35,621 bases of DNA, taken from Planctomycetota bacterium. GTDB taxonomy: Bacteria > Planctomycetota > Phycisphaerae > FEN-1346. This document shows positions 13,762 through 33,369 of this stretch, in pieces. Within the stretch, counting starts at the first letter, position 1, and every line of letters starts with the position of its first letter. The DNA lies in contig VGYT01000009.1 in NCBI GenBank assembly GCA_016872895.1, forward strand, positions 1 through 35,621, given 5' to 3'. Below the pieces are notes generated by a model that was not told the DNA's origin, ran no database searches, and saw only the letters and a list, made by a program, of their open reading frames with translations. The position numbers were made by a program, and so were the translations under genes.

Positions 13762-15042
13762 ATGAAGATCAGGTTCGCAGCGCCCAGGGGTGTGCTTGTC
13801 GTGCTGTCGGCCGCGATGCTTGCGGCGGTGCTCGTTTCACCGGCGTCGGCCGCGGCGGCCGCAGGCCGGCCGGGCGGTGCGGCCGCGCCGGGGGCCGCGG
13901 CCCCGTCCACCGACTGGCCGCAGTGGCGCGGCCCGGAGCGCACCGGCATCTCGACGGAGACGGGCTGGCGGACCGACTGGTCGGCCGACCCGCCCAAGGC
14001 GCTGTGGAAGAAGTCCCTCGGCGAAGGGTTCTCCTCCTTCTCTGTGGCGGCCGGCCGCGTGTACACCATGGGCAACGCCGACGGCAAAGACACCGTGTGG
14101 TGCTTCGACGCCGCCACGGGGGCGGAGGCCTGGAAGCACACGTACCCGTGCGGCGACGTGGATCACCCCGGCCCGCGCTGCACGCCCACGGTGGACGGCA
14201 ATCGCGTTTACACGCTGAGCCAGGCGGGCGACCTGTTCTGCCTGGATGCCGCCGGCGGCAAGGTCGTCTGGCAGATGCAGGTGACCAAGCAGTTGGGCGT
14301 CAAGAAGCCGCAGTGGGGCTTTGCGTGCTCGCCGCTGGTGCTGGGCGACGCGCTTATCATCGACGTGGGCGCGATGGCGGCGCTGAAGAAGGCGGGCGGC
14401 GAGGTCATATGGAAGTCGGGCACAGACGTGGCGGGCTACAGTTCGCCGTTCGCCTTCAAGGTCGGCAGCGCGACGCTCCTGGCGAGTTTCAACGCCTCGG
14501 GGCCCATCGTCTTCAGCGCCGCCGACGGCAAGGTCATCGGCAAATCGCAATGGAAGACGTCGTACGACGTGAACGCCGTCACGCCCATCGTGGTCGGCAA
14601 TACGTTCTTCGTCTCGTCCGGCTACAACCGCGGCGCGGCCGTCTTCGAGGTGTCCGACGCGGGCCTTAAGACCGTGTGGGAAAACAGGAACATGCGCAAC
14701 CACGCCAACAACTGCGTCCTGTGGCAGGGGTTCCTGTACGGTTTCGACGGCCAGGTGGACCAGGGCGCGCTGGGGTGCATCGAATACAAGACGGGGGAGA
14801 AGAAGTGGTCGGAGTCGAGCGTCAGGGCCGGGGCGCTGATGATGGCCGACGGCAAACTTATCTGCATGAACAGCAAGGGCGAACTGGTCGCGGCCCAGGC
14901 GGCGCCCGACGGATACAAGGAAATCGCCCGCACGAAGGTCCTCGGCGGCACGTGCTGGACCGCGCCGGTCCTCTCGGGCGGCCACATCTACTGCCGCAAC
15001 CACGACGGCGACATGGTGTGCCTGGACGTAAGAGGCAGGTAA
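13762..15042 (+). CDS. Secreted PQQ-like beta-propeller repeat protein
   Basis: A 426-residue protein with a clear signal peptide (about 1-34, ending PASAAAAA). The mature start DWPQWRGPERTGISTETGW is the hallmark of planctomycete PQQ_2-type propellers. Blades repeat patterns such as GRVYTMGNADGKDTVWCFDA, NRVYTLSQAGDLFCLDAAGG and GHIYCRNHDGDMVCLDV. No dehydrogenase catalytic residues are recognisable, so a binding or scaffold role is as likely as catalysis. It follows a good promoter (13668) and an AAGGAA ribosome site, making it the first gene of the long plus-strand run. Three further propellers of this type are in the window. Confidence 0.9.
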   Translation: MKIRFAAPRGVLVVLSAAMLAAVLVSPASAAAAAGRPGGAAAPGAAAPSTDWPQWRGPERTGISTETGWRTDWSADPPKALWKKSLGEGFSSFSVAAGRVYTMGNADGKDTVWCFDAATGAEAWKHTYPCGDVDHPGPRCTPTVDGNRVYTLSQAGDLFCLDAAGGKVVWQMQVTKQLGVKKPQWGFACSPLVLGDALIIDVGAMAALKKAGGEVIWKSGTDVAGYSSPFAFKVGSATLLASFNASGPIVFSAADGKVIGKSQWKTSYDVNAVTPIVVGNTFFVSSGYNRGAAVFEVSDAGLKTVWENRNMRNHANNCVLWQGFLYGFDGQVDQGALGCIEYKTGEKKWSESSVRAGALMMADGKLICMNSKGELVAAQAAPDGYKEIARTKVLGGTCWTAPVLSGGHIYCRNHDGDMVCLDVRGR

Positions 15043-15095
15043 CATTACGGCGCCGGTTGAGGCTTTGCGCGGCGTGGTTCCCGATGCGCCTCGCG

Positions 15096-15123
15096 GCGCG
15101 GCGGGTCGGGGGACCCGCCGCGC
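15096..15123. repeat. Family A palindrome, copy A1 (intergenic)
   Basis: GCGCGGCGGGTC (15096-15107) pairs perfectly with GACCCGCCGCGC (15112-15123) around a 4-base loop. It lies 40 bp upstream of the ferredoxin gene start. Confidence 0.9.
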
Positions 15124-15162
15124 AAGGCGGCGCCGCAGGCGCAACAGGCCCCGCGAGCAAAC

Positions 15163-16008
15163 GTGAAGCAGCCGCCGACCATCCTGTACTGCCACTGCGC
15201 GTACGCCGAGGTCATTCCGGACGAGACGCGGCGGGGCGTCCTTGAGGCGCTGGCCGCCCGCGGCGCGGCCTTCGAGGCCGTGGCGGACCTGTGCGAACTG
15301 GCGGCGCAGCGGGACCCGATGCTGGCGCGCCTGGCCGTCGCGGCGGACCTGCGCATCATCGCCTGCTGGCCGCGCACGGTGCGGTGGCTGTTTGCCTTCG
15401 CCGGTGCGCCGCTGGCGGCGGAGGGCGTCCGGTTCTTCAACATGCGGCGCGAGGGCGCCGAGGAAATCCTCGCCGCCGCATGCGGCACGGAGTCCGGGCG
15501 CGGGGCGGGTGCGCCGCGCGGCGGGTCGGGAGACCCGCCGCGCAAAGCGCTTCGGCGCGCGGGCGCGACGGCCGGGCAAGCCGGCCGTGCCGCATCGCGC
15601 CGAGCCGAGCCGCGCGCCGCGCCGGCGTTCCCGGGCAGGAAGGCGGGCGAGTGGGTCCCCTGGTTCCCCGTGCTGGACTACGAGCGGTGCCGGAACTGCC
15701 GGCAGTGCCTGGAGTTCTGCCTGTTCGGGGTGTACGCGGCGGACGAGGGGGGGCAGGTTCGCGTGGCGCATCCCGAGCGGTGCAAGACGGGGTGCCCGGC
15801 GTGCGCGCGGCTGTGCCCGGCGGTGGCGATTATTTTTCCGAAATATGCGGATGGCGCAATAAGCGGCGACGACGCGATGCCGGCGGCCGCCGGTCGGCCG
15901 GCGTCGCCGATCGACTTTTCGTCCCTGGCCGGGCTGGACCTGGGCGAGGCGCTGAGGCGGCGCCAGGCCATCCTGCGTGCCCGCCAGGAGGGCCGCCGTG
16001 AGCCGTGA
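15163..16008 (+). CDS. Ferredoxin-domain protein with N-terminal alpha/beta domain
   Basis: A 281-residue cytoplasmic protein. The N-terminal domain (about 5-108) begins [20 protein letters not shown] and contains [16 protein letters not shown] do not recognise its family with certainty. The C-terminal half binds two 4Fe-4S clusters: [11 protein letters not shown] (176-186) and [13 protein letters not shown] (207-219). Between them lies a linker that is largely repeat-derived. [10 protein letters not shown] (about 118-127) comes from palindrome A2, and TAGQAGRA (about 136-143) from a family B arm. It starts at GTG 15163, with no strong ribosome site. It overlaps the radical SAM gene by 11 bp, so it may be that enzyme's electron donor. 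Confidence 0.82.
15516..15543. repeat. Family A palindrome, copy A2 (inside ferredoxin gene)
   Basis: GCGCGGCGGGTC and GACCCGCCGCGC are perfect arms around GGGA. It is in frame and translated as [10 protein letters not shown], the same peptide as copy A4 in the cyclase gene. Confidence 0.9.
15568..15591. repeat. Family B arm, copy B3 (inside ferredoxin gene)
   Basis: ACGGCCGGGCAAGCCGGCCG continues to the GTGCC end and equals the right arm of the long family B palindrome. Only one arm is present. It is translated as TAGQAGRA, the same frame as copy B2. Confidence 0.75.
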
Positions 16009-17545
16009 AATGCGCCCGGCGGTCGTGCTGGTGGCCGACCGCACGCTGAGCGCCCGCTACGACGTGCTGTTTGAGGGCATCTTCGCCACGATGCAGACCA
16101 GGCACGTGCCGGAGGCGGTCATGCGGCGGTTCGTGGCGCCGCCCGTTCGGACGGACGCAGCCGGCCGCGCGCGCACCGCCCCGCTGGGCCTGAGGCGCGT
16201 GGAAGCGGCGCTGGCGGCGGGCGCCGGCCTCGGCCCCGATGATATCGTCTGCACCACGCCCGAGGCCCTGCCGCGGCTGCTGGGACCGCACGTGAAGGCC
16301 GTCGCCGTCAGTTCCAGCGACCCGCTCGGCTGCGGCATGAGCAATACGACGACCACGGATTTCTGGACGGGGCAACTGTACACGCGATTCTGGATGGACC
16401 GGCTGACGGAGCAACTGGCCGCCGCGCGGCGGCGGTTCGGTTTCCGAACAGTCGTAGGGGGGGCCGGCGCGTGGCAGTACCTGGAGCACCCGGAGGCGGG
16501 CGCGCGGCACGGGGCGGATACGGTCTTCGACGGGTACTTCGAGGGCGCCGGGCCGGGGTTGTTCCGGGACTTGCTGGCCGGGCGCGACGTGCCGCCGATC
16601 GTGCGCGCCGGCGAGACGGCGGCGGCGGGCGTGCGGCCCATCCGGGGGGCGTCGCTGCTGGGCATCGTGGAACTCTCGCGCGGGTGCGGCGGGGGCTGCC
16701 GCTTCTGCGCAATGGCCGCGCGGCCGATGGAGCACCTGACGGCGGGCACCATCCTGGCGGACATCGAGACGAACGTTGCGGCGGGCATGTCAAGCGCGGT
16801 CCTGGGCAGCGAGGACTTCTTCCGCTACGGGGCCGACGGACGCCGCGTGAACTTCGAGCGGCTGCGGGGCCTGCTGGAAGATATCCGCCGCCTGCCCGGC
16901 CTGGGCTTCGTGCAACTCGACCACGCAAACGTCTCGTCGGTGCTGCAACTGGAGGACGGCGAGTTGCGCGAAATCCGGCGGCTGCTCGGCTTCGCGCGGC
17001 CGACGGAGTACCTGTGGGTGAACCTGGGCATCGAGACGGCCGGCCCGCGGCTGCTTGCGGCCAACTGTCCGAGCAAGGCGGCCCCGTTCAGCGCGGACGA
17101 CTGGCCCGAGATGGTGCGCGAGGCGGCCGACCGCCTGGTCCGCACGGGCTTCTTCCCCGTCTTCAGCATCGTCCTGGGCCTGCCGGGCGAGACGCCCGAC
17201 GACGTGGCGACAACGCTGCACCTGGTGCGCCGCCTGTCGGCCGGGCGGGCGGTGGTGTTCCCTGTTTTCTTCGAGCCTGTGCGAGCAGGGCCGGACGGGC
17301 GCGACGCGCCCTTCCGCCTGGCTGCGATGACGCCCGAGCACCTGGAACTCTACACGGCGTGCTACGAACTGGCCTTCCGGTGGGTGCCGCGCCTTTACTG
17401 GGACAACCAGCGGGCAGGAGGTGTCGGGTTATTGAAGCGCCTGGCCGTGCAGTTGCTGGGTAGAATGGAAACGCTGACGTGGCGGCGGAACTTCGCCCGT
17501 GCGCGGAAGCGGCTGGCGGCCGTCGAGCCGAAGGCGCGCGGTTAG
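15998..17545 (+). CDS. Radical SAM protein
   Basis: A 515-residue enzyme. The radical SAM cluster motif is CGGGCRFC (Cys230, Cys234, Cys237) in [19 protein letters not shown]. The N-terminal third (about 1-220) is arranged like a B12-binding-type domain, with [19 protein letters not shown] and [13 protein letters not shown], but no DxHxxG is seen, so cobalamin binding is doubtful. The barrel continues with [28 protein letters not shown] and [23 protein letters not shown] at 15986-15991 lies six bases before GTG 15998, which decides the start over the ATG at 16010. It overlaps the ferredoxin gene and is followed by the DUF116-polyprenyl synthase. The substrate is unknown; a lipid or isoprenoid is a guess from neighbours. 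Confidence 0.88.
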
Positions 17546-17606
17546 CCGCGGGCGGCACGCGCGCGGTTAGCCGCGGGCGGCACGCCCGCGGCCGTTCCGG
17601 CCGCGG
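17536..17606. repeat. 25-bp direct duplication and nested hairpins after the radical SAM gene
   Basis: GCGCGGTTAGCCGCGGGCGG plus CACGC occurs twice in tandem (17536-17560, 17561-17585). The first copy contains the radical SAM stop codon. The second runs into overlapping hairpins: GCCGCGGGC with GCCCGCGGC (17570-17592), and CCGCGGCC with GGCCGCGG (17586-17606). Confidence 0.8.
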
Positions 17607-17695
17607 CTGAACGAGGGGGGGCCGCCCCGCCCAGCCCCAAGTGTGGCATCGGAGCGTTACAGGTTTAGCCCGTGCCCCCGCCGCAGGGGGCGGGT

Positions 17696-17701
17696 TATAA
17701 T
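17696..17701 (+). promoter_or_regulatory. Isolated TATAAT upstream of the DUF116-polyprenyl synthase gene
   Basis: A perfect -10 hexamer 75 bases before the ATG, preceded by a CCCCC/GGGGG hairpin but with no recognisable -35. It may be an internal start point for the terpenoid genes. Confidence 0.25.
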
Positions 17702-17775
17702 CTGTGGGGCCAGGGGGCGCGCTGCGCGCGCCGGCCCGTGCGGCCGATGGCGTCCGGTCCGGGCAGGAACGGTGC

Positions 17776-19572
17776 ATGGAAGAACGCATCTTCGGAATCC
17801 GTGGCAGCCTGCATCCGGGCGCCGCCGGCGCTGAGGCCGTCGGCGAGGCCGCCCAGGACGCGATTCCGCCGACGAGGGCGGAGCGCGAAGGCATCCTTGC
17901 CGCCGCGCGCCGGCACGTCATGGGCCGCACGGCCATCCCGCCGTTCTCGGTGAAGGAACTGGAGGAGCACTCTGCGGCGGTCTTGGCGGCGGCGGGGGCC
18001 GACGAGAAGTACCGCAAGTTCGCGGCCGTCCTTGTGAGCAACGAGGCGTGGCGTCCGACGGTGGGGGCCGTGCCGTTCGCCCGGCGCCTGCTCCTGTTGC
18101 CGAAGTGCCTCCGTTCCGAGAAAGACTGCCGCGGCATGCTGGATGAACTGGGCCTGGTGTGCGCCGCGTGCGGGTCGTGCCCCATCCACGAGTTCAAGGC
18201 GGAGGCGGAGCGCCTCGGCTACGCGGTGCTGGTGGCCGAGGGCGCCGCCGTCGTCATGGCCCTCATCCAGAGCCGGCGCATCGAGGCGGTCGTAGGCGTC
18301 AGTTGCATCCAGGCCCTGGAGTCGATCTACCCGCTGATGGAGTCGGCGGCCGTGCCGGGCATCGCCATCCCCCTGTTGTGCAACGGCTGCGCGAACACGC
18401 GCGTGGAGGCCGAGTGGGTGTGGGACGCCATCCGGCTCTGCGGCACCGATGCGCCGCAGCGGCTGGACCTGGACTCGCTGCGGCGCCAGGTCGATGGCTG
18501 GTTCGCTGCGGACGCGCTGGAGGAGGTTCTCGGCCCGGCCGCAACCGAGACGGAGCGCCTGGCCCGCGGCTGGCTGGCGAAGTCGGGCAAGCGGTGGCGT
18601 CCGCTTCTTGCGGCGGCGGCGTACCAGGCGCTGCGCGAGGACCCGCAGTCGCCGCTGCCGGAGAGCCTGCGACGGATCGCGCTGGCGGTGGAGTGCTTCC
18701 ACAAGGCCTCGCTCGTGCACGACGACATCGAGGACGACGACGCCACCCGCTACGGCGAAAAAACGCTTCACGAGGAGCACGGCGTGCCGGTGGCGCTGAA
18801 CGTGGGCGATTTCCTCCTGGGCGAAGGGTACCGCCTGATTGCCGAGTCGCGATGGCCGGCGGAACGTAAGGTTCAGATGCTCCGCGCGGCGGCGAGCGGA
18901 CACCGCGAACTGTGCCTCGGCCAGGGGGCGGAACTGTGCTGGGCGAGGCGGCCGGCGGTTCTGTCGGCCGCAGAGGTCCTCGCAATCTTCCGCCGCAAGA
19001 CCGCCCCGGCGTTCGAGGTGGCCCTGCGCCTGGGAGCGCTGGCCGCCGGAACCGCCGACGGATGCTGGGACGCGCTCCACCGCTACAGCGAGGCCCTCGG
19101 CATAGCCTACCAGATAGGCGACGACCTGAAGGATTACGACGGCGACGGGGACCCGGACGACGTGGCGGCCCTGAGGCCCTCCATCCTGCTGGCCATCGCG
19201 CACGAGCGGGCCGAGGGCGGCGCGCGGCAGCGGCTGGAGTCCGTCTGGCGGCGGACGGCCGAGCGGGGGACCGAGGCGCCCGGCGTGCGGCGGCTGCTGG
19301 AGGAACTCGGCATCATCCAGGAGGCCCGCCGCCTGCTGGGGTCTTACGAGGATGAAGCCATCCGAAGCCTTGAGCCGCTGTGCGACGAGGCGCTCAAGGG
19401 CCTGCTGCGCCGCGTCATCTTCCGCATTTTCAGCCGCCTGCCTGCCGGCCCTGTCGCGGCGGGCGTGCCATGGCCTGCCGGCAGGGAGGGCCCCGGACAA
19501 GGGGACTTGCGCCGTGAGCCTGAGGCAGGACATGCTCCTGGCGGCCCGCCGCGGGGCGGCGGCGCTCGCTGA
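17776..19572 (+). CDS. DUF116 - polyprenyl diphosphate synthase fusion
   Basis: A 598-residue fusion. Residues about 100-225 match DUF116: LLLLPKCLRSEKDC, then GLVCAACGSCPIHEFKAEAE, LGYAVLVAEGAAVVM and VVGVSCIQALE, then CNGCANTRVEAEW. The nine Cys of this region could bind a metal or Fe-S cluster. Residues about 250-560 are an isoprenyl diphosphate synthase: GKRWRP (271-276), first Asp-rich motif VHDDIEDDD (about 315-322), LNVGDFLLGEGY, FRRKTAPAFEVA, and second Asp-rich motif YQIGDDLKDYDGD (about 445-457). It should condense isopentenyl units into a polyprenyl diphosphate; chain length is not readable. The start is ATG 17776 with AGGA upstream. Its 3' end overlaps the next gene by 59 bp. DUF116 has no established function that I know. 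Confidence 0.9.
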   Translation: MEERIFGIRGSLHPGAAGAEAVGEAAQDAIPPTRAEREGILAAARRHVMGRTAIPPFSVKELEEHSAAVLAAAGADEKYRKFAAVLVSNEAWRPTVGAVPFARRLLLLPKCLRSEKDCRGMLDELGLVCAACGSCPIHEFKAEAERLGYAVLVAEGAAVVMALIQSRRIEAVVGVSCIQALESIYPLMESAAVPGIAIPLLCNGCANTRVEAEWVWDAIRLCGTDAPQRLDLDSLRRQVDGWFAADALEEVLGPAATETERLARGWLAKSGKRWRPLLAAAAYQALREDPQSPLPESLRRIALAVECFHKASLVHDDIEDDDATRYGEKTLHEEHGVPVALNVGDFLLGEGYRLIAESRWPAERKVQMLRAAASGHRELCLGQGAELCWARRPAVLSAAEVLAIFRRKTAPAFEVALRLGALAAGTADGCWDALHRYSEALGIAYQIGDDLKDYDGDGDPDDVAALRPSILLAIAHERAEGGARQRLESVWRRTAERGTEAPGVRRLLEELGIIQEARRLLGSYEDEAIRSLEPLCDEALKGLLRRVIFRIFSRLPAGPVAAGVPWPAGREGPGQGDLRREPEAGHAPGGPPRGGGAR

Positions 19573-20482
19573 CCCGCGGGCGGTGGCGGCCTTCGTCGGT
19601 TCCCAGGCGGCGCCGGAGGGCGGCTTCCGCGACCGCTCCGGCAAGTGCGACCTTTACTACACCGTCTTCGGGCTTCAGTGCCTGGCCGCATTGCGGATTG
19701 CGGATTGCGGATTGCGGATTGAAAGAACAAGGCGCACAGAACCGGCGCGGCCTGTCAGCACCCGGTCCCCACCGCGCGATTCTCCATCTTCAATGCGCGA
19801 TGCCGAATCTTACCTGGGCAGATTCGCCGACCTCTGCTGCCTTGACCTGGTCCACGCGGCGTGCCTGGCGCGGTGCTGGGCCGTGGCCCGGCCGGAGGGC
19901 GCGCCGGCGGACCTCCGCCGGGCCTTCGCGCAGCACATCGAGTCTTTCCGGGCGGCCGACGGCGGGTATCACGCCGCCGCCGGGGCCGGGGCCGGCTCGG
20001 CCTACGGCGCGTTTCTCGCCCTCGGAGCGTACCAGGACCTGGGCGCGGCCGTGCCCGACCCGGCGGCGCTGGCCCGCTCGGTGCGCTCGCTCCGAACGCC
20101 CGACGGCGGATACACGAACGAGCGGTTCCTGCCGTTGAGTTCGGCGCCCGCGACGGCGGCGTGCATCGTGGTCCTTCGGGAACTCGGCGAGCCTGCGGCG
20201 CCGGAGGCCGCGGCCCGGCTCCTTGCGTGGGCGCATCCGTCGGGCGGTTTCCTGGCGATGGCCGCCGCGCCGGCGCCGGACCTTCTTTCGACCGCGACGG
20301 CGCTGCACGCCCTGGCCCGGGCGGGGGTGCGGCCGGATGAGCCGCTGCGGGCGGGGTGCGCGCGGTTCGCGGCCGGGCTGCTCGGCGAGTGCGGCGGGTT
20401 CCGCGGCCACGCCGACGACCCGGCCGCCGACTGCGAGTACACTTTCTACGGCCTCCTGGCGCTGGGGCACCTGGCGAGTTAG
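19514..20482 (+). CDS. Prenyltransferase/squalene oxidase repeat protein, probably non-catalytic
   Basis: A 322-residue alpha/alpha-toroid protein. Repeats such as FRAADGGYHAAAGAGAGSAYG, RTPDGGYTNERFLPL and CGGFRGHADDPAADCEYTFY match the prenyltransferase beta-subunit pattern. Compared with protein farnesyl- or geranylgeranyltransferases, the zinc Cys appears replaced (PDLLSTATAL) and the zinc His appears replaced by Tyr (CEYTFYG). There is also no DxDD. It may therefore be a structural partner of the next protein. About 40 residues (59 onward, LRIADCGLRIERTRR) come from a GCGGATT heptamer repeat and its flank. GTG 19514 is preferred; ATG 19532 is possible. It overlaps the synthase gene. Confidence 0.75.
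   Translation: MSLRQDMLLAARRGAAALADPRAVAAFVGSQAAPEGGFRDRSGKCDLYYTVFGLQCLAALRIADCGLRIERTRRTEPARPVSTRSPPRDSPSSMRDAESYLGRFADLCCLDLVHAACLARCWAVARPEGAPADLRRAFAQHIESFRAADGGYHAAAGAGAGSAYGAFLALGAYQDLGAAVPDPAALARSVRSLRTPDGGYTNERFLPLSSAPATAACIVVLRELGEPAAPEAAARLLAWAHPSGGFLAMAAAPAPDLLSTATALHALARAGVRPDEPLRAGCARFAAGLLGECGGFRGHADDPAADCEYTFYGLLALGHLAS
19690..19721. repeat. ATTGCGG heptamer repeat, copy D1 (inside prenyltransferase-like gene)
   Basis: Four tandem ATTGCGG heptamers plus ATTG, translated in frame as LRIADCGLRIE. The 80 bp that follow have no match to the protein family and probably belong to the same insertion. Confidence 0.85.
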
Positions 20483-20530
20483 AGGCTGTTTGATAACCGC
20501 GTGTGGCGTACGATGCGAACAATCGAAGCC

Positions 20531-20560
20531 TGCGCGGCGGCTCTCCTGGGCCGCCGCGCA
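20531..20560. repeat. Variant palindrome in the gap before the cyclase gene
   Basis: TGCGCGGCGGC (20531-20541) pairs perfectly with GCCGCCGCGCA (20550-20560) around TCTCCTGG. It is related in base composition and ends to family A and lies 35 bp before copy A3. Confidence 0.8.
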
Positions 20561-20594
20561 ATGACCGGCTCCGGCGCCCTTGAAATCGCCGGTG

Positions 20595-20622
20595 GCGCGG
20601 CGGGTCAAGAGATCCGCCGCGC
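20595..20622. repeat. Family A palindrome, copy A3
   Basis: GCGCGGCGGGTC with GATCCGCCGCGC around AAGA; one G-T pair. It lies 24 bp before the chosen ATG of the cyclase gene. Confidence 0.85.
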
Positions 20623-20645
20623 GTCACGCAGATGGGCATATTCAG

Positions 20646-22718: not shown

Positions 22719-22743
22719 CTCGGCCCGCCCGCGATGCTATACT
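22715..22743 (+). promoter_or_regulatory. Candidate internal promoter before the PQQ lipoprotein gene
   Basis: GTGACT, then 17 bp, then TATACT (22738-22743): four and five matches to sigma70 hexamers. It overlaps the cyclase stop codon. Transcription would begin about at ATG 22750, implying a leaderless message if that start is used. Confidence 0.4.
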
Positions 22744-22749
22744 TAAGCG

Positions 22750-24099
22750 ATGCGGCAGACGGGCTTGATGGCACGGCTGACATTCTGCGCGGCGGGTCTC
22801 CCGCTTTGCGCCGCGGGCCTCCCGACCCGCCGCGCACACGGCGCATCGGCGCAGCCCGGCGCGCGGCCAGTCGGGAGAGCCGCCGCGCCGCGCGCAGGCC
22901 CCGCGCTGCCGGCGGCAATTGCCTTGTGCGCAGCGGCGGCGCTGGCACTGGCCGGCTGCTGGGGCGGCCCGGCCGACGACGGGGAGGACGACGCGGCCGA
23001 CGGCGCCTCGTTTGAGGCCGCCCCGTGGCCGATGTTCCACGGCCGGCCGGACCTGGCGGGCGCGGCGCCGGGGCGGCTACCCAGGAAACTGACGCTGCGC
23101 TGGAGGTTCCAGGCCGACGGAGCAATCAAGTCGGCTGCCGCGATTGACCCTGCGCCCCTCGACGCTTCCGGCCGCGATGCCCGCGTCTTCGTCGGCTCCA
23201 GCGACTGCCACGTGTACGCGCTCGCCCTGGCCGACGGGCGGAAACTGTGGGCCTACAAGACCGCCGGCGGTGTCGAGGCAGCCCCGCTCGTCCTGGAGGG
23301 CGCCGTTTACGTGGGCTCCAACGACGGAGTCCTGTACGCCCTCGACGCCGCAACGGGGACCCTGCGATGGGAGTACGAGACGGGCGGCCAGATACCGGGC
23401 GGGGCCAACTGGGCACGGTCCCCCCAGGGCGACCGCACGTGGATTCTCGTGGGCAGTTACGACATGCTGCTGCACTGCCTGGATGCGGGGACCGGCCAGG
23501 TCGTCTGGACGCACGAGACGGGCAACTACATTAACGGCACGCCCGCCGTGGGCGGCGGCCGGATCGTCTTCGGCGGCTGCGACGCGCTGGTTCACATCCT
23601 GTCGGCGGCCGACGGGTCGCCCGTGGCGACGGTCGGGACCGACGCGTACGTGGCCGGGTCGGCCGCGCTGGCCGACGGCCGCATCTTCGTGGCCAACTAC
23701 CAGGGCAGGTTCTTCTGCATCGACCTGGAGACGCAGCGGATTCTGTGGCACTACGGCGACGACGAGTCGCCGTTTTACTCCTCGCCCGCCGTGGGGCCCC
23801 GGCAGGTGGTCATCGGCTGCGGCGACAACAAGGTCCACTGCATTGACCGCGGGAGCGGCCGGTCCTTGTGGACCTTTGCGACGCGCGGCAACGTGGATTC
23901 CAGCCCGGCCATCTGCGGCAACCGGGTCGTCGTCGGGTCGGGCGACGGGCGGCTGTACGTGCTGCGGCTGTCGGACGGGCGGCAGGCGTGGTCGTACGAG
24001 GTCGGCCAGCCCGTGACGGCCTCGCCCGCCGTCTCGGGCGGCTGGGTGGTCGTGGGCGGCGAGGACGGCGCCGTGTACGCCTTCGGGCCGGAACCGTGA
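22750..24099 (+). CDS. PQQ-like beta-propeller lipoprotein
   Basis: A 449-residue protein. A lipoprotein signal ends at LALAGC (Cys69 when counted from ATG 22750), after an unusually long N-terminal lead of about 50 residues. Part of that lead is encoded by palindrome A5. The true start may therefore be further in, although no better start codon with a ribosome site is seen. The propeller has seven or so blades with AVYVGSNDGVLYALDAATG, TWILVGSYDMLLHCLDAG, RVVVGSGDGRLYVLRLSDG and WVVVGGEDGAVYAFG; this is BamB-like in general form. It sits between the cyclase (31-bp gap) and a glycosyltransferase (1-bp gap). It may be a scaffold or lipid-handling factor in the envelope; catalysis is not indicated. 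Confidence 0.85.
   Translation: MRQTGLMARLTFCAAGLPLCAAGLPTRRAHGASAQPGARPVGRAAAPRAGPALPAAIALCAAAALALAGCWGGPADDGEDDAADGASFEAAPWPMFHGRPDLAGAAPGRLPRKLTLRWRFQADGAIKSAAAIDPAPLDASGRDARVFVGSSDCHVYALALADGRKLWAYKTAGGVEAAPLVLEGAVYVGSNDGVLYALDAATGTLRWEYETGGQIPGGANWARSPQGDRTWILVGSYDMLLHCLDAGTGQVVWTHETGNYINGTPAVGGGRIVFGGCDALVHILSAADGSPVATVGTDAYVAGSAALADGRIFVANYQGRFFCIDLETQRILWHYGDDESPFYSSPAVGPRQVVIGCGDNKVHCIDRGSGRSLWTFATRGNVDSSPAICGNRVVVGSGDGRLYVLRLSDGRQAWSYEVGQPVTASPAVSGGWVVVGGEDGAVYAFGPEP
22786..22836. repeat. Family A palindrome, copy A5 (in 5' end of PQQ lipoprotein gene)
   Basis: TGCGCGGCGGGTC (22786-22798) pairs perfectly with GACCCGCCGCGCA (22824-22836). The 25-base loop contains further GCGGG pieces, as if two elements had recombined. 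Confidence 0.85.
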
Positions 24100-24100
24100 T

Positions 24101-25405
24101 ATGAAGACAGTTCAGATAACCCCCGGGGCAGGCGGCGGCTTCCACTGCGACAACTGCCTCCGCGACAACGCTCTCGTGCTGGAACTCCGCCGCCGCGGCC
24201 ACGACGTGCTCATGGTGCCGCTGTACCTGCCGATGGCCGCCGACGGCCCCGACGCCAGCCGGGGCGCGCCCATCTTCTTCGGCGGCATCAACGTGTACCT
24301 TCAGCAGAAGTGGCCGCTGCTGCGGCGGACGCCCAGGTGGCTGGACCGGCTGCTGGACTCACCGCGCCTCCTGGCCTGCGTTGCCCGCCGCGCGGCGATG
24401 ACCCGCCCGCAGGACCTCGGCGAGCCGACGCTTTCGATGCTCCGCGGCGAAGAGGGGCGGCAGGTGAAGGAACTCGAACGGCTCGTCGCGTGGCTGGCCG
24501 AGCACGAGCGGCCGGACCTGGTGTGCCTCTCAAACGCGCTCCTCCTGGGCATGGCGCGGCGCCTGAAGCAGGCGCTCGGCGTGCCCGTGGTGTCGCTGCT
24601 TCAGGACGAAGATGCGTTCCTCGACTCGCTGCCGGAGCCGCACCGCGCCGAGGCGTGGGACACGGTCCGCCGCCGCGCCGCCGAACTCGACGGTTTCATC
24701 GCCACGAGCCGCTACTTCCGCGAGGTGATGGTCCGGCGGCTGGGCCTGCCGCCCGAGCGCGCCTGGGCCGTGCACGCGGGCCTCGACGCGGCGGGCTACG
24801 AGCCGGCCGCCGCGCCGCCGCAGCCCCCGGCCATCGGCTTTACCGCCCGCCTGTGCGAGGCCAAGGGGCTGGACACGCTGGTCGATGCGTTTCTCCTGGT
24901 CAGGAGCGAGGGCGCCGCGCCCGGCCTGCGGCTGCGCGCGGCCGGGATGCAGATGCCGGAGGACCGCGAGTTCGTCTCGCGGATGCGGCGGCGGCTGGCC
25001 GAGCGCGGCGCCGACGCCGACGCCGAGTTCCTCCCCGCGCCGGACCGCGCGGCCCGGCAGCGGTTCCTTCAGACGGTGTCGCTGGTGGCGGCGCCCGCGC
25101 GCCAGGCGGAGGCGTTCGGGCTTTTCGCCCTGGAGGCGATGGCCGCGGGCGTGCCCGTGGTCCTCTCGCGCGTGGGGTCGTACCCGGAACTGGTGGAGGC
25201 ATCCGGCGGCGGGGTGCTGGTGGAGCCCGACGACCCGGCGGCGCTGGCGGCGGCCATCGGCCGCCTGCTCGCCCGGCCCGACGAGGCCGGCGACCTGGCG
25301 GCGCGCGGACGCCGGGCGGTCCTCGACTACTTCAGCATCCACCGCATGGCCGACGAGACGCTGGCCGTCTTCGAGCACGTTGCCGGCGCCAAGCGCGCCG
25401 TATGA
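24101..25405 (+). CDS. GT4 family glycosyltransferase
   Basis: A 434-residue retaining glycosyltransferase of the GT-B fold. The N-terminal domain opens ITPGAGGGFHCDNCLRDNAL, with a Gly-rich sugar-acceptor loop, and ends near ATSRYFREVMVRRLGLP. The C-terminal domain starts with the typical IGFTARLCEAKGLDTLVDAF and carries the EX7E motif in EAFGLFALEAMAAGVPVV. The latter contacts the nucleotide-sugar. VGSYPELVEASGGGVLVEPDD is also standard. It starts one base after the lipoprotein stop and so is in the same operon. In context it may glycosylate a lipid product of the terpenoid enzymes, but donor and acceptor are unknown. Confidence 0.92.
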   Translation: MKTVQITPGAGGGFHCDNCLRDNALVLELRRRGHDVLMVPLYLPMAADGPDASRGAPIFFGGINVYLQQKWPLLRRTPRWLDRLLDSPRLLACVARRAAMTRPQDLGEPTLSMLRGEEGRQVKELERLVAWLAEHERPDLVCLSNALLLGMARRLKQALGVPVVSLLQDEDAFLDSLPEPHRAEAWDTVRRRAAELDGFIATSRYFREVMVRRLGLPPERAWAVHAGLDAAGYEPAAAPPQPPAIGFTARLCEAKGLDTLVDAFLLVRSEGAAPGLRLRAAGMQMPEDREFVSRMRRRLAERGADADAEFLPAPDRAARQRFLQTVSLVAAPARQAEAFGLFALEAMAAGVPVVLSRVGSYPELVEASGGGVLVEPDDPAALAAAIGRLLARPDEAGDLAARGRRAVLDYFSIHRMADETLAVFEHVAGAKRAV

Positions 25406-25406
25406 T

Positions 25407-25485
25407 CGGCGGGCTTGCCTGCCGCGGTACGTTCACGCGGCGGGCGTGCCGCGCTGTGTTCATGCGGCGGGCTTGCCTGCCGCGC
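25407..25485. repeat. Three spaced hairpins of CGGCGGGCTTGCCTGCCGCG type
   Basis: Copies at 25407-25426, 25437-25454 (shorter) and 25464-25485 are spaced about 28-30 bp. Copies 2 and 3 share a GTTCA(C/T)GCGGCGGGC lead. They fill the gap between the glycosyltransferase and the ABC ATPase and could be an operator array or a REP cluster. Confidence 0.8.
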
Positions 25486-25504
25486 TCTTCGCGGAGGCGT
25501 GCGT

Positions 25505-26293
25505 ATGCCCGATGCGCCGATTATTCAACTCGAAGCCGTGACAAAGCATTACGTGGGCCCCGACGGGCGGCCGACGCCGCCCGTTTTGGCGGGCGTGTCG
25601 CTGGCCATCGCCGCGGGCGAGTCGCTGGCCGTCGTCGGCCCGTCCGGCTCGGGCAAATCGACGCTTCTGAATATCATGGGCACGCTCGACCGCCCCACCA
25701 GCGGCCGCGTCCTCCTGGAAGGCCGCGACCTGGCCGCGATGGGCGACGAGGACCTTGCGGCCGTCCGGAACCGGCGCATCGGCTTCGTGTTCCAGTTGCA
25801 CCACCTGCTGCCGCAGTGCACGGCCCTGGAGAACGTGCTGGTGCCCACGCTGGCGCCCGGCGCCCGCGGAGCGGACGTGGCCCGGCCGGCTTGTCCGGCC
25901 GTGGGCAACTCAGCACGGGCAGAACCACGGCCGGACAAGCCGTCCGTGCCACATGGCGCAGAGAGGGAACCTGCTGAGGACCGCGCGCGGCGGCTGCTTG
26001 AGCGCGTGGGCCTGGGCCGGCGCCTCGACTACCGCCCCGGGCAACTCTCCGGGGGCGAGCGGCAGCGCGTGGCGGTGGCCCGGTCGCTCATCAACCGCCC
26101 CGCCCTGCTCCTGGCGGATGAGCCGACCGGGTCGCTCGACCGCGCCTCGGCCGACGGCCTGGCGGCGCTCCTGGTGGACCTCAACCGCCGCTACGGCATC
26201 ACGCTGGTGGCCGTCACGCACTCGGCCGCGCTGGCCGCGATGATGGGGCGGGTGCTTGAACTTCGCGACGGGCACTTGAGCCCCGCGTCGTGA
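25505..26293 (+). CDS. ABC transporter ATP-binding protein, LolD/MacB type
   Basis: A 262-residue ATPase. The Walker A is GPSGSGKST (45-53), the Q-loop FQLHHLLPQ (Gln97), the signature LSGGERQ (181-187), the Walker B LLLADEPTGSLD (201-212) and the switch His239. These match LolD/MacB-type export ATPases. ATG 25505 has GGAGG seven bases upstream. Residues about 125-150 ([11 protein letters not shown] onward) are encoded by a full family B palindrome. They lie in the helical subdomain between the Q-loop and signature, explaining why the protein is about 30 residues longer than usual. It pairs with the FtsX-type permease 9 bp downstream. It probably moves a lipid, lipoprotein or small molecule out of the inner membrane. 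Confidence 0.93.
   Translation: MPDAPIIQLEAVTKHYVGPDGRPTPPVLAGVSLAIAAGESLAVVGPSGSGKSTLLNIMGTLDRPTSGRVLLEGRDLAAMGDEDLAAVRNRRIGFVFQLHHLLPQCTALENVLVPTLAPGARGADVARPACPAVGNSARAEPRPDKPSVPHGAEREPAEDRARRLLERVGLGRRLDYRPGQLSGGERQRVAVARSLINRPALLLADEPTGSLDRASADGLAALLVDLNRRYGITLVAVTHSAALAAMMGRVLELRDGHLSPAS
25877..25952. repeat. Family B long palindrome, copy B1 (inside ABC ATPase gene)
   Basis: Arms of 28 bp (25877-25904 and 25925-25952), 26 of 28 complementary, with a 20-base loop. The core is GGCCGGCTTGTCCGGCC. The frame of the ATPase is kept. Confidence 0.9.
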
Positions 26294-26302
26294 ACATCGC
26301 CC

Positions 26303-29300
26303 ATGAACTCTCGGACACTGATAGCGCGCGGGCTGCGGTTCCACTGGCGCTCGCACCTGGGCGTGGCGCTGGGGGCCGCCGTGGCCACGGCCGTGCTCGT
26401 CGGCGCGCTGGCCGCGGGCGACTCGGTGCGCGCCAGTTTGCGGCGGATGGCCCTCGCGCGGCTGGGAAGGACGGAGGTCGCGCTGGCGGCCGGCGACCGC
26501 TTCTTCGGCGCCGGGCTGGCCGGCCGCCTCTGCGATGCGATCGGGCGGGACGCGGCGCCCGTGCTGCTCCTGGGCGGCACGGCGGCCCGACAGGACGGCG
26601 CCGCCCGCGCCAACTCCGTCCAGGTGGCGGGCGTGGGGCCGGAGTTCTGGAGGCTCGCCGCGGCGGCGTCGCCGCCCCCGCCCGATGCGCCCCGCAGCGC
26701 GGCCCTGAACGAGCGCCTCGCGCGGCACCTGGACCTGAAGGCCGGCGATGCCATCCTCGTGCGCGTGGGCAAGCCCAGCGCCATCCCGCTCGATGCGCCG
26801 CTTTCGGGCGAGGCGGAACCTCCGCCCGCGTTCCACCTGACCGTCGCGGCCATCGTCGGCGACGAACATTTCGGACGGTTCAGCCTCCAGGCAAACCAGG
26901 CCGCACCGTACAACGTCTTTGTGCCGCGCGAGTGGCTGGCTGAACAAGTGGAGCACCCGGACCGGGCGAACGTGCTGCTCGTGGGAAGCGAACTGCGCCG
27001 CGTGAACCAGTCTTCGCCCGACGAGACCTGGACGACGCCCGACCGGGCCGATGACGCGCTGGCCCGCGCCTGGACGCTCGGCGACGCCGAACTGGCCCTC
27101 GTGCCGCGCGGGGATCGCGGGGAGCCCGGCGGCGTGGAACTGCGTTCGCGCCGCGTGTTCCTGGACGCCGCCGTGGAAGCAGCCGCCGCGGCGGCCGACC
27201 CGCGGGCCGTGGGCATCCTGGCGTACTTCGCCATCGAACTGCGCGTGGGCGAGCGGGCGGCGCCGTATTCCCTCGTCGCAGCCCTCGGGCGGCTGAATCC
27301 GCAATACGCAATACGCAATCCGCAATCGCCTGACCCCCGGCCCTCGACGCTCGACGCACTTCTGCCGCCCGACCTGGCCGACGATGAGATCGTCATCAAC
27401 TCCTGGCTGGCCGAGGACCTGGCGGCCGGGCCCGGCGACCGGCTTGAGATGGCGTATTACGCCGTCGGCCCCGGGCGGCGGCTGGAGACCCGCTCCGCGC
27501 GATTGCGCATCCGCGCGGTCGTGCCGCTCGAGGGGGCGGCGGCCGACCCGACGCTCATGCCCGACTTCCCCGGCCTGGCGGACGTCGAGAACTGCCGCGA
27601 CTGGAAGCCGGGCGTGGCCATCGACCTGAAGAAGATTCGACCAAAAGATGAAGATTACTGGAATCGTTATCGGGGCACGCCGAAGGCGTTCGTCGCGCTG
27701 GCGGCCGGGCAGAAGATGTGGGCAACCCGCTTCGGCGGCCTCACGGCCGTGCGGTTCCCGCAGGCGAGCGACCCGCAGGCGGTTGAGGCGCGCCTGCGGG
27801 CGGGGCTCGACCCGAGGTCCCTGGGCCTGTACTTCCGGCCCGTGCGGGAGCAGGCCATCGCCGCAGTCCGCAGCGCCACGGACTTCGGCGGCCTGTTCCT
27901 GGGCCTCAGCATCTTCCTCGTGGCGGCCGCGCTCGTCCTGGCGGGCCTCCTGTTCGCCCTCCAGGTGGAGCAGCGGACGGAGGAGGCGGGGACGCTGCTG
28001 GCCCTCGGCCTGCCGCCGCGGCAGGTGCGCCGGCTGTTCCTGGCCGAGGGCGGGGCGCCGGCGCTGGCGGCCGGCGCGGCCGGCGGGGCGGCCGGGATTC
28101 TCTACACGCGGGCGATGCTGGGCCTGCTGGCGGGGGCGTGGGCGGCGGGCGGCGCGGCGGATCTCAGGTTCCACGCCGAACCTTTGACGCTCGTTCTCGG
28201 CATCGCCGGGGGGCTTGCGGCAGGGCTTGCGGCCATCGCCGCGACCGTCCGACGCCTGGCCCGCGCCCCGGCCCGTGAACTTCTGGCGGCGGGCGCCGAG
28301 GCCGAACTCCGCCCCGCAGCGCAGGGGCGGACACGGCTCGCACCCAGCGCCGCCCTGGCGGTCCTCGCGGCGGTCGGCGGCGGGGCCGTGCTGGAACTTG
28401 CGCCGGAGGGCGGCGGCGAAGCGGCCGCCGGCGCGTTCTTTGCCGCAGGGGCGCTATTCCTTGTCGGCTGCCTCGCCTTCTGCCGCATGCTGATGACGCC
28501 GCTTGCGCGGCCGGCGCCGGCGGGGCGATTCCACATGGGGCGACTGGTCCTGCGCAGCGTGGCGGCGCGGCGCGGGCGGAGCCTTGCGGTCGTGGCGCTC
28601 CTTGCGTGCGGCGTGTTCCTGGTGGCGGCCGTGGGCGTCTTCCGCCAGGGGGCCGAGCGCGACCCCGAGCGGCGCGCCAGCGGCACGGGCGGCTTCGCCC
28701 TGTACGCCGAGTCGTCCGTGCCGGTCGTCTACGATTTGAACTCGCCGGCCGGCCGCCGTGCGTTCGCCCTGCCGGACGACCTGGCGCGCGACATGAAGGT
28801 CGTGCCGCTGCGCCTGCGCGATGGGGACGACGCCTCGTGCCTGAATCTGAACCGGCCGCAGAATCCGCGCCTGGCCGCCGTCCGGCCCGAGGAACTGGCT
28901 GCGCGCGGGGCCTTTGCCTTTACCGAAGCGCTCGGCGCGGGCGCGGGCGAGAACCCGTGGCTGCTGCTCGCGCAGCGGCCGGACGACGGCGCCGTCCCGG
29001 CCATCGCCGACCAGGCGACTATTACGTGGGCGCTCGGCAAGAAGGCCGGCGACACGCTCGATTACACGGATGAGCGCGGGCAGCCGTTCAAGGTGCGCCT
29101 TGTCGGCGGGGTCGCCAACTCCATCCTCCAGGGGAGCATCGTGATTTCGGAGGATGCGTTTATCGAGAAGTTTCCATCCGCCGGCGGCTGGCGCGTGTTC
29201 CTGGTCGACGCCCCGCGCGGGCGCGCGGACGAGGCGGCGCAGGTTCTCTCGCGGCAGATGTCGGACGTGGGGCTGGCCGTGACGCCGGCGGCGGAGCGCC

Positions 29301-29707
29301 TGGCGGCCTTTACCGCCGTCGAGAATGCGTACGTCTCGATCTTCCAGGCCCTGGGCGGGCTGGGGCTGGTGCTGGGCAGCATCGGCCTGGGCGTCGTCGT
29401 GCTCCGCAACGTGATGGAGCGGCGGGAGGAACTCGCGGTCATGCGGGCGGTGGGCTTCCCGGTGCGGCTGCTGCGGCGGCTGATACTGTGGGAACACTGG
29501 CTCCTGCTCGGGCTGGGCCTGGCGGCGGGCCTGTGCGCGGCCGGGGGGGCCGTGGTGCCGGCCGTTCGGGCGGCGGGGGCAGAGGTGCCCTACCTCCTTC
29601 TGGGCGCGACGCTGGCGGCGGTGCTGGCGTCGGGGCTGGCGTGGACGTACCTTGCGGCCCGGCTTGCGCTTCGCGGGCCGCTTCTTGATGCGCTGCGGAA
29701 CGAGTAG
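26303..29707 (+). CDS. ABC transporter permease with two FtsX domains (MacB/LolCE-like, long form)
   Basis: A 1134-residue inner-membrane protein. The first helix (HLGVALGAAVATAVLVGALA) leads to a large extracytoplasmic region (about 45-525). A first FtsX block of helices follows (about 530-680: GGLFLGLSIFLVAAALVLAG, EEAGTLLALGLPPRQVRRLF). Then come a second periplasmic region and a second FtsX block at the C-terminus (EELAVMRAVGFPVRLLRRLI, about 1020-1130). This two-block layout is that of long FtsX permeases, not the four-helix MacB. A heptamer repeat is translated as LNPQYAIRNPQSPDPR (about residue 332-347) in the first periplasmic region. It is nine bp from the ATPase stop, with no clear ribosome site. 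It is the final gene of this run before a 326-bp gap. Confidence 0.88.
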   Translation: MNSRTLIARGLRFHWRSHLGVALGAAVATAVLVGALAAGDSVRASLRRMALARLGRTEVALAAGDRFFGAGLAGRLCDAIGRDAAPVLLLGGTAARQDGAARANSVQVAGVGPEFWRLAAAASPPPPDAPRSAALNERLARHLDLKAGDAILVRVGKPSAIPLDAPLSGEAEPPPAFHLTVAAIVGDEHFGRFSLQANQAAPYNVFVPREWLAEQVEHPDRANVLLVGSELRRVNQSSPDETWTTPDRADDALARAWTLGDAELALVPRGDRGEPGGVELRSRRVFLDAAVEAAAAAADPRAVGILAYFAIELRVGERAAPYSLVAALGRLNPQYAIRNPQSPDPRPSTLDALLPPDLADDEIVINSWLAEDLAAGPGDRLEMAYYAVGPGRRLETRSARLRIRAVVPLEGAAADPTLMPDFPGLADVENCRDWKPGVAIDLKKIRPKDEDYWNRYRGTPKAFVALAAGQKMWATRFGGLTAVRFPQASDPQAVEARLRAGLDPRSLGLYFRPVREQAIAAVRSATDFGGLFLGLSIFLVAAALVLAGLLFALQVEQRTEEAGTLLALGLPPRQVRRLFLAEGGAPALAAGAAGGAAGILYTRAMLGLLAGAWAAGGAADLRFHAEPLTLVLGIAGGLAAGLAAIAATVRRLARAPARELLAAGAEAELRPAAQGRTRLAPSAALAVLAAVGGGAVLELAPEGGGEAAAGAFFAAGALFLVGCLAFCRMLMTPLARPAPAGRFHMGRLVLRSVAARRGRSLAVVALLACGVFLVAAVGVFRQGAERDPERRASGTGGFALYAESSVPVVYDLNSPAGRRAFALPDDLARDMKVVPLRLRDGDDASCLNLNRPQNPRLAAVRPEELAARGAFAFTEALGAGAGENPWLLLAQRPDDGAVPAIADQATITWALGKKAGDTLDYTDERGQPFKVRLVGGVANSILQGSIVISEDAFIEKFPSAGGWRVFLVDAPRGRADEAAQVLSRQMSDVGLAVTPAAERLAAFTAVENAYVSIFQALGGLGLVLGSIGLGVVVLRNVMERREELAVMRAVGFPVRLLRRLILWEHWLLLGLGLAAGLCAAGGAVVPAVRAAGAEVPYLLLGATLAAVLASGLAWTYLAARLALRGPLLDALRNE
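27296..27326. repeat. CGCAATA/C heptamer repeat, copy D2 (inside permease gene)
   Basis: AATCCGCAATACGCAATACG and onward: four tandem heptamers, the reverse complement of the ATTGCGG unit at 19690. It is translated as NPQYAIRNPQ without breaking the frame. Confidence 0.85.
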
Positions 29708-29749
29708 CCGCCTGTGCGGTTCAATATGCCGGCGGGCCTGCCGTTCGAG

Positions 29750-31461: not shown

Positions 31462-31466
31462 CTTTC

Positions 31467-32791: not shown

Positions 32792-33369
32792 GCGAACCGA
32801 AGAAGCAACTGAGCCGCCGCGAAATGCTGCGCCGCGGCGCCCTGGGCGCGGGCCTGGCAGGCGTGGCCGGCACGGCCGCCGTCCTGGCCGCGCGCACCGC
32901 CCGCAGCGGGACCGTCTGGCAACTGGACCCCGAGAAGTGCATACAGTGCGGCAACTGCGCGGTGAACTGCGTGCTGGACCCGTCGGCGGTCAGGGTGGTC
33001 CACGCCTTCGCGCTGTGCGGGTACTGCGACCTGTGCTTCGGCTACTTTCCGCCGGGGTTCGAGCCGGACGATGAGTTCGAGACGCCGGGGGCGGAGAGCC
33101 AACTCTGCCCGACGGGGGCCATCCTCCGCCGCTGGACCGAGGGGCCGCACTTCGAGTACACCATCGACGAGGCCCTGTGCATCGGCTGCGGCAAGTGCGT
33201 CAAGGGCTGCGGCGCGTTCGGCAACGGGTCGCTCTTCCTCCAGGTGCGGCACAACCGATGCTTGAATTGCAATGAGTGCAGCATAGCGGCGGCGTGCCCG
33301 GCGGGCGCCTACCGCCGCGTGCCCGCGGACCATCCGTACCTCCTGAAAGGCGAGGACCAGAAGGCTTGA
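32788..33369 (+). CDS. Tat-exported 4Fe-4S ferredoxin, NapG-like
   Basis: A 193-residue protein. The twin-arginine signal SRREMLRRGALGAGLAGVAG directs folded export. The mature part binds several clusters: CIQCGNCAVNC, CGYCDLC with LCPTGAI, CIGCGKCVKGCGAFGNG, and CLNCNECSIAAACPAGAYRR. It should carry electrons on the periplasmic face between the membrane polyferredoxin encoded next and an unknown acceptor, perhaps a flavoprotein. The ATG overlaps the previous stop, and its own TGA overlaps the next TTG start. The start is fixed by the Tat motif at residues 9-14. Confidence 0.92.
   Translation: MSEPKKQLSRREMLRRGALGAGLAGVAGTAAVLAARTARSGTVWQLDPEKCIQCGNCAVNCVLDPSAVRVVHAFALCGYCDLCFGYFPPGFEPDDEFETPGAESQLCPTGAILRRWTEGPHFEYTIDEALCIGCGKCVKGCGAFGNGSLFLQVRHNRCLNCNECSIAAACPAGAYRRVPADHPYLLKGEDQKA

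What the first reader, a model, noticed from the sequence alone, without database searches (positions are those of the whole stretch)
13762..29707. Candidate undescribed terpenoid-lipid pathway: ferredoxin, radical SAM, DUF116-polyprenyl synthase, two toroid proteins, GT4 and ABC exporter
Seen: consecutive plus-strand genes, several overlapping, encode a ferredoxin, a radical SAM enzyme, a polyprenyl synthase with both Asp-rich motifs, a prenyltransferase-repeat protein and a cyclase with intact DADDTA. A PQQ-propeller lipoprotein, a GT4 glycosyltransferase and an ATPase/permease pair follow. Known: these families build, cyclise, modify, glycosylate and export lipids. Inference: together they make and export a cyclised isoprenoid. 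No squalene synthase is present in the window, so the product may not be a hopanoid.
Basis: partly seen in the sequence, partly recalled or inferred. Interest (0 to 1): 0.8.

Follow-up and report, generated by a model that had tools for sequence, protein, structure and literature searches.

The report
Squalene-independent cyclic terpenoid gene cluster
Bacteria of at least six phyla share an undescribed set of five neighbouring genes that most likely builds a long isoprenoid chain and folds it into rings without going through squalene, which would be a new route to hopane-like membrane lipids and a candidate source of ring-shaped molecular fossils in oil.

Summary
The genes are real. The core is ferredoxin, radical SAM, DUF116-polyprenyl synthase fusion, single-barrel toroid protein (tor1) and SHC-like class II cyclase (cyc), window 15163-22718. 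Its synteny recurs in six phyla (Planctomycetota, Verrucomicrobiota, Acidobacteriota, Lentisphaerota, Kiritimatiellota, Bacteroidota). In 61 relatives, cyc and tor1 occur in the same 15 of 16 genomes that carry the fusion and in none of 45 others; a single-contig genome keeps all three at distant sites. Canonical hopene cyclases in these relatives always come with squalene synthase (16 of 16); cyc does so in 1 of 15, and the window's own genome has none. The cyclase keeps the acid machinery (DADDTA, His) and most cation-stabilising aromatics; the fusion keeps both Asp-rich motifs and seven invariant DUF116 cysteines. Best reading: a dedicated pathway that cyclises the fusion's own polyprenyl product, not squalene. 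The product is unknown. The GT4, ABC and PQQ proteins form a second conserved operon (with NHL, Tat-ferredoxin and NapH-like genes) that exists without the core in three relatives, so glycosylation and export of the terpenoid are unproven. Most novel open reading: the source of the regular tricyclic polyprenoids postulated as precursors of tricyclic terpanes (cheilanthanes).

The parts
13762..15042 (+). PQQ1: PQQ-type beta-propeller protein with signal peptide; precedes the core in PQQ-context loci
   Evidence: PF13360 E 4e-26; same position in L036, L070-L072, L075, L078, L080, L082, L088
15163..16008 (+). Core 1, ferredoxin: N-domain with 4 invariant Cys plus two [4Fe-4S] motifs (8 invariant Cys)
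   Evidence: Fer4 hits; invariant Cys
15977..17545 (+). Core 2, radical SAM enzyme of the TIGR04013-like type (type a); most other lineages have an unrelated-type 396-aa MoaA/NirJ-like radical SAM in this slot
   Evidence: PF04055 E 4e-9, TIGR04013 E 1e-16 below cut-off; replacement
17704..19572 (+). Core 3, DUF116 domain fused to trans-polyprenyl diphosphate synthase
   Evidence: PF01976 E 9e-31, PF00348 E 5e-43; 7 invariant Cys and both Asp-rich motifs in 75 homologues
19532..20482 (+). Core 4, tor1: single alpha/alpha-barrel prenyltransferase/cyclase-like protein (open frame from 19352)
   Evidence: PF00432; AF2 model pLDDT 92.6; fold matches to SHC/MstE and RabGGTase/FTase beta
20661..22718 (+). 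Core 5, cyc: class II terpene cyclase of the SHC superfamily, DADDTA (open frame from 20580)
   Evidence: PF13243 E 1e-25; profile to 1gsz E 1.6e-34; active-site mapping
22750..24099 (+). Module 2: PQQ2 propeller lipoprotein
   Evidence: PF13570 E 2e-59; conserved order
24101..25405 (+). Module 2: GT4 glycosyltransferase
   Evidence: PF00534, PF13439; also present in genomes without the core
25415..26293 (+). Module 2: LolD/MacB-like ABC ATPase
   Evidence: PF00005 E 2e-33
26303..29707 (+). Module 2: large FtsX/ADOP-type permease
   Evidence: PF02687, two stretches
30034..31461 (+). Module 2: PQQ3 propeller
   Evidence: PF13360; order
31458..32393 (+). Module 2: NHL-repeat protein
   Evidence: PF01436
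32614..33369 (+). Module 2: ferredoxin with Tat-type signal (SRREMLRRG)
   Evidence: Fer4 hits; sequence
33276..34709 (+). Module 2: NapH-like membrane ferredoxin
   Evidence: Fer4_5 hits

Best explanation
The window carries a dedicated, squalene-independent pathway for a cyclic isoprenoid. The fusion's synthase domain condenses IPP into an all-trans polyprenyl diphosphate, probably longer than C15 (inferred). The class II cyclase protonates the terminal double bond of that chain, or of an alcohol or other derivative of it, and folds it into fused rings (inferred from the conserved acid and aromatic residues). Tor1, a single isoprenoid-binding-type barrel, is an obligatory partner that holds, transfers or further processes the chain (inferred). 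The DUF116 Fe-S-type domain and the ferredoxin supply electrons for a reductive or radical step, and the radical SAM enzyme modifies the lipid (least certain). The adjoining PQQ/GT4/ABC/NHL/NapH operon is a separate module that may serve the same lipid but also exists without it.
For: Conserved order of the five genes in six phyla. Fusion, cyc and tor1 in the same 15 of 16 genomes, cyc and tor1 in 0 of 45 others (p about 2e-13 for cyc). Kept together though scattered in the single-contig genome G049; 15 of 17 genomes whose fusion locus shows no cyc have it elsewhere. No squalene/phytoene synthase in 15 of 16 fusion genomes of the class, own genome included, whereas all 16 genomes with canonical SHC have one; 25 of 50 fusion genomes of other groups lack it too. 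Acid triad, His and most aromatics of SHC conserved in cyc. Synthase motifs and DUF116 Cys invariant. The genome has two further polyprenyl synthases, so the fused one is extra.
Against: No product, substrate or transcript is known. Half of the fusion genomes outside the class do have SQS_PSY genes. Chain length is inferred from a few residues. No direct evidence links the DUF116 domain or radical SAM to lipid chemistry; two different radical SAM types fill the slot. A cultured carrier, Pontiella sulfatireligans F21, was reported with common major lipids only (PMC7356697).
Confidence: 0.6

Rival explanations
1. Hopanoid-type pathway: cyc acts on squalene made by a separate hpnCDE or squalene synthase locus.
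For: SHC-superfamily sequence and DXDDTA.
Against: No SQS_PSY in the own genome (89 percent complete) nor in 14 of 15 cyc genomes of the class; 70 bits against the hopene-cyclase equivalog cut-off of 431.
Confidence: 0.05
2. The fusion, ferredoxin and radical SAM form an unrecognised anaerobic route to squalene or another head-to-head hydrocarbon, which cyc cyclises, so the product is still a triterpenoid.
For: Explains why an Fe-S domain is fused to a prenyl synthase and why SQS is missing; H451 and the later-ring aromatic position F601 are kept.
Against: No prenyl-coupling enzyme of this kind is known; E45 and Y609 are lost and the pocket is altered.
Confidence: 0.15
3. Meroterpenoid: the polyprenyl chain is first attached to an aromatic or quinone head by a UbiA enzyme elsewhere, and cyc cyclises the tail.
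For: UbiA genes exist in the genome; tor1's fold search also matches MstE, a meroterpenoid cyclase.
Against: No UbiA or aromatic-ring genes recur among the conserved neighbours.
Confidence: 0.1
4. One reading: core and PQQ/GT4/ABC genes are one pathway that makes, glycosylates and exports the lipid.
For: The two blocks abut in the same order in the window, G025, G005 and the lentisphaerote L066, and are neighbours in a bacteroidete; module-2 markers are enriched in core genomes (p below 0.001).
Against: Module 2 stands without core in G023, G029 and G041; core stands without module 2 in Verrucomicrobiota and Acidobacteriota; GT4 is missing from the G005 module.
Confidence: 0.2

Closest known systems
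Squalene-hopene cyclase (AaSHC, PDB 1gsz) and the hpn hopanoid pathway
   Same: Full-length SHC architecture, DXDDTA, H451, W312, W489, F601 positions kept.
   Different: Far below the hopene-cyclase cut-off; F365 and F605 are Trp, E45 lost; no squalene synthase in most carriers of the class; linked to its own polyprenyl synthase.
Drimenyl diphosphate synthase SsDMS (7xq4 and others), bacterial class II cyclase of prenyl diphosphates
   Same: Class II cyclase that works on a prenyl diphosphate rather than squalene; sequence and fold matches.
   Different: Sesquiterpene enzyme; no Fe-S, radical SAM or fused synthase partner.
Bacillus C35 sesquarterpene route (tetraprenyl-beta-curcumene cyclase; from general knowledge)
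   Same: Long polyprenyl diphosphate from a polyprenyl synthase is cyclised by an SHC-family enzyme.
   Different: There a separate first cyclase makes tetraprenyl-beta-curcumene; no DUF116, radical SAM or tor1.
DUF116 proteins (COG1852; MMP0162, and Psta_0175 as the fused form, PMC5898192)
   Same: Same Cys-rich domain; fusion to polyprenyl synthetase was mentioned there, with a guess at electron transfer.
   Different: Neither the cluster nor the cyclase partnership was described there.
Protein prenyltransferase beta subunits (RabGGTase, FTase)
   Same: Single alpha/alpha barrel like tor1, TM about 0.55-0.65.
   Different: No recurring alpha-subunit gene or peptide substrate seen among neighbours; zinc ligands not tested.

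Membership tests
Hopanoid (squalene-hopene) pathway | Squalene source (PF00494, HpnC/D or squalene synthase) in the genome | tested here: not met
   None in G000, in 15 of 16 fusion genomes of the class, or in 25 of 50 others; positive control in 16 of 16 SHC genomes
Hopanoid (squalene-hopene) pathway | Cyclase above the TIGR01507 hopene-cyclase cut-off | tested here: not met
   70.1 bits (window) and 82 bits (L025) against 431.1
SHC-superfamily class II terpene cyclase | DXDDTA acid motif and acid-partner His in SHC register | tested here: met
   D374/D376/D377/H451 conserved in 45 of 45
SHC-superfamily class II terpene cyclase | SHC profile domains and full-length alignment | tested here: met
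   PF13243 above cut-off; aligned to 1gsz from residue 12 to 591
Trans-polyprenyl diphosphate synthase | Two Asp-rich motifs, GKRxRP and related motifs | tested here: met
   Conserved in 75 homologues; closest solved relatives are GGPP and FPP synthases
Trans-polyprenyl diphosphate synthase | Product chain length | not testable with these tools
   Only inferred from small residues at -5/-4 and Phe at -8
DUF116 (PF01976) | Score above the gathering cut-off and Cys set | tested here: met
   106.8 bits against 25; 7 invariant Cys
Protein prenyltransferase beta subunit (for tor1) | Zinc ligands Asp/Cys/His and an alpha-subunit partner | not tested
   Fold similarity only
HdrA N-terminal Fe-S domain (for the ferredoxin's N-domain) | Sequence relationship to solved HdrA | tested here: not met
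   Profile of 21 sequences finds no HdrA among PDB chains at E up to 5; the four-Cys resemblance is from memory only

The most novel reading that the evidence does not exclude
The cluster makes cyclised regular (head-to-tail) polyprenoids, such as tricyclohexaprenol and longer homologues, i.e. the long-sought biological precursors of the tricyclic terpanes (cheilanthanes) of sediments and petroleum, as squalene-free hopanoid or sterol surrogates in PVC bacteria, Acidobacteriota and Bacteroidota.
Probability: 0.2. Interest if true: 0.95.

Novelty: new variant of a known kind. Interest (0 to 1): 0.75.

Why it matters
As far as I know, bacterial sterol and hopanoid routes start from squalene. A conserved partnership of a polyprenyl synthase with an SHC-type cyclase in genomes without squalene synthase would be a second route to polycyclic isoprenoid lipids, with undescribed Fe-S and radical SAM steps. 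It gives a concrete gene test for the origin of tricyclic terpanes, which the literature attributes to a hypothetical prokaryotic membrane lipid, tricyclohexaprenol (PMC10319793) or more loosely to bacterial membranes and algae (PMC10464518), and it warns against reading SHC-like genes as hopanoid markers.

Tried and rejected
Squalene-fed hopanoid synthesis: rejected by genome searches. The stronger claim that the core excludes squalene synthase: nearly true in the window's class (1 of 16) but not in general (25 of 50 have it), so I claim independence, not exclusion. One 15-gene pathway: weakened because module 2 stands alone. HdrA homology of the ferredoxin N-domain: not supported. DUF116 fold: good model (pLDDT 85.5) but no PDB match with E below 0.001. 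My first reading that the cyclase C-terminus had lost F601: dropped after a joint alignment with canonical SHCs. Literature searches for DUF116 with radical SAM or polyprenyl synthase gave only PMC5898192. PMC8692599 (soil terpene clusters) mentions SHC clusters but not DUF116.

Full report
What is there. Open frames with coding-type codon-position GC carry the stated domains: PQQ propeller, ferredoxin, radical SAM, DUF116 fused to a polyprenyl synthase, a prenyltransferase-repeat protein (tor1), an SHC-like cyclase (cyc), a second PQQ propeller, a GT4, and an ABC ATPase with an FtsX-type permease. The plus-strand run continues beyond the given coordinates with a PQQ protein, an NHL protein, a Tat-type ferredoxin, a NapH-like protein and another PQQ ORF that leaves the window. 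Homologues suggest later starts for tor1 (19532) and cyc (20661) than the longest frames.

Synteny. A scan of one genome per species found 417 stretches encoding relatives of the fusion; the best 80 loci lie in Planctomycetota, Verrucomicrobiota, Acidobacteriota, Lentisphaerota, Kiritimatiellota and Bacteroidota, with a few unplaced. Around them the order ferredoxin, radical SAM, fusion, tor1, cyc recurs. With conservative automatic ORF calling, the ferredoxin is close by in 50 of 59 loci with enough flank, a radical SAM in 50 of 59, tor1 in 57 of 70 and cyc in 45 of 60.

Co-occurrence independent of linkage. In 61 genomes (the window's own and 60 relatives) the fusion is in 16, the cyc family in 15 of these and in none of the other 45, and tor1 in the same 15; Fisher exact p is about 2e-13 for cyc against fusion. 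This p value ignores relatedness, but the 16 genomes belong to six families. The one exception, G003, shows only part of the fusion. In G049, a single-contig genome, fusion (5.52 Mb), cyc (5.33 Mb) and tor1 (3.14 Mb) lie apart and are all kept. Of 17 genomes in which cyc was not seen at the fusion locus, 15 have cyc elsewhere or further off. I take this as the strongest evidence that the three proteins act in one pathway.

No squalene needed. PF00494 (squalene/phytoene synthase) is absent from the window's genome and from 15 of the 16 fusion genomes in its class, while found in 22 of the 45 others (Fisher p 0.002). Canonical SHCs (E below 1e-120) occur in 16 of the 61 genomes, and all 16 have a squalene synthase, so the search finds the expected partnership where it exists; cyc shows it in 1 of 15. 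Among 50 fusion genomes taken across phyla, 25 do have PF00494 genes, so the cluster does not exclude squalene; it does not depend on it. The own assembly is 89 percent complete, so one absence could be chance, but not the pattern.

The proteins. Cyc: a profile of 45 homologues aligns along Alicyclobacillus SHC (E 1.6e-34). In a joint alignment with 16 canonical SHCs, D374, D376, D377 and H451 are conserved in all 45, as are W312, W489 and F434 (F601 in 44); F365 and F605 are replaced by Trp; Y420 is Phe as in the canonical relatives; E45 is lost and Y609 falls in a gap. The acid machinery and most cation-stabilising aromatics are kept in an altered pocket. It is far below the hopene-cyclase cut-off. 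Fusion: both Asp-rich motifs are conserved, as is the wall ECFHKASL-x-HDDIEDDD. Ala and Ser at positions -5 and -4 are small, as in longer-chain synthases (general knowledge), and Phe at -8 may set a floor, so I infer more than C15 but cannot fix the length. The genome has two other polyprenyl synthases, so this one is dedicated. DUF116 has seven invariant Cys, a confident model and no solved relative. Tor1 is a single alpha/alpha barrel; its best fold matches are short SHC-type cyclases, MstE, and RabGGTase or FTase beta subunits. The ferredoxin has two [4Fe-4S] motifs plus an N-domain with four invariant Cys, which is a separate small ORF in many lineages. Two different radical SAM families fill the same slot, with at least three changes on the fusion tree.

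Two modules. In Verrucomicrobiota, Acidobacteriota and many Planctomycetota the core is preceded by or close to NifS, a GcvH-like protein and a CobW-like GTPase. In the window, Lentisphaerota, Kiritimatiellota and Bacteroidota it adjoins PQQ-type genes. The two contexts need a single change on the tree. The GT4, ABC and PQQ genes belong to a nine-gene module (PQQ2, GT4, ABC, FtsX, PQQ3, NHL, Tat-ferredoxin, NapH-like, PQQ) that stands on its own in G023 and is likewise found in G029 and G041, genomes without fusion, cyc or tor1. Its markers are enriched in core genomes but not confined to them. G005, of the window's own family, has core plus module 2 without the GT4. Glycosylation and export of the terpenoid are therefore possible, not shown.

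Mechanism. Shown by sequence: intact synthase motifs, an intact class II acid centre, Fe-S-type Cys sets and near-obligate co-occurrence. Inferred: the synthase's product, or a derivative, is the substrate of cyc; protonation of a terminal alkene starts ring closure (H451 kept); electrons from the ferredoxin reach the DUF116 site and the radical SAM enzyme for a modification step. Unknown: chain length, number of rings, head group, and the role of tor1. The nearest known chemistry is the SHC family, prenyl-diphosphate class II cyclases such as SsDMS and the Bacillus C35 pathway (general knowledge).

Novelty. The only paper found that mentions DUF116 together with polyprenyl synthetase does so as a domain fusion, with a guess at electron transfer (PMC5898192). 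I found no description of the cluster in the open library; most subscription papers are not held there. Tricyclic terpanes have been attributed to a hypothetical regular C30 isoprenoid of prokaryote membranes, tricyclohexaprenol (PMC10319793; see also PMC10464518). A polyprenyl synthase partnered with an SHC-type cyclase is the gene content such a lipid would need, but nothing here shows that product. The cultured carrier Pontiella sulfatireligans F21 has been reported with common major lipids and menaquinones (PMC7356697).

Limits. Most loci come from MAGs. Counts of shared flanks are lower bounds because GC-rich frames confuse simple ORF calling. Fisher tests are not corrected for phylogeny. 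Nothing has been measured.

Noticed in passing
window 15100, 15520, 21048: A palindromic repeat (GGCGGGTC-GGGA-GACCCGCC) lies in frame inside the ferredoxin and cyclase genes; about 123 copies within one mismatch in the genome against 0 for the reversed control. It resembles small palindromic elements that insert into genes in other bacteria.
   Followed up: partly
window 19691-19717 and about 27300: Short tandem repeats of GCGGATT type lie inside tor1 and the FtsX-type permease gene, apparently as in-frame inserts absent from homologues.
   Followed up: no
window 22750-34709; loci L122, L123, L126: A conserved nine-gene module of unknown function (PQQ propellers, GT4, ABC/FtsX, NHL, Tat-ferredoxin, NapH-like) that occurs with or without the terpenoid core; looks like a periplasmic redox or export system.
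   Followed up: partly
L020, L025, L058 and about 30 other loci near the fusion: In the other main context the core is accompanied by a DndA/IscS-like cysteine desulfurase, a GcvH-like protein and a CobW-like GTPase, hinting at sulfur or metal-cluster handling in the pathway.
   Followed up: partly
window 967-4410 (-): One ORF joins an extracellular solute-binding protein (SBP_bac_5) to its transporter permease (BPD_transp_1), normally separate genes.
   Followed up: no
window 24101 onward; L066:15556; L072:19677: The module's GT4 enzymes share a CxNC[LIM]RD motif near the N-terminus, unusual for GT4 as far as I know.
   Followed up: no
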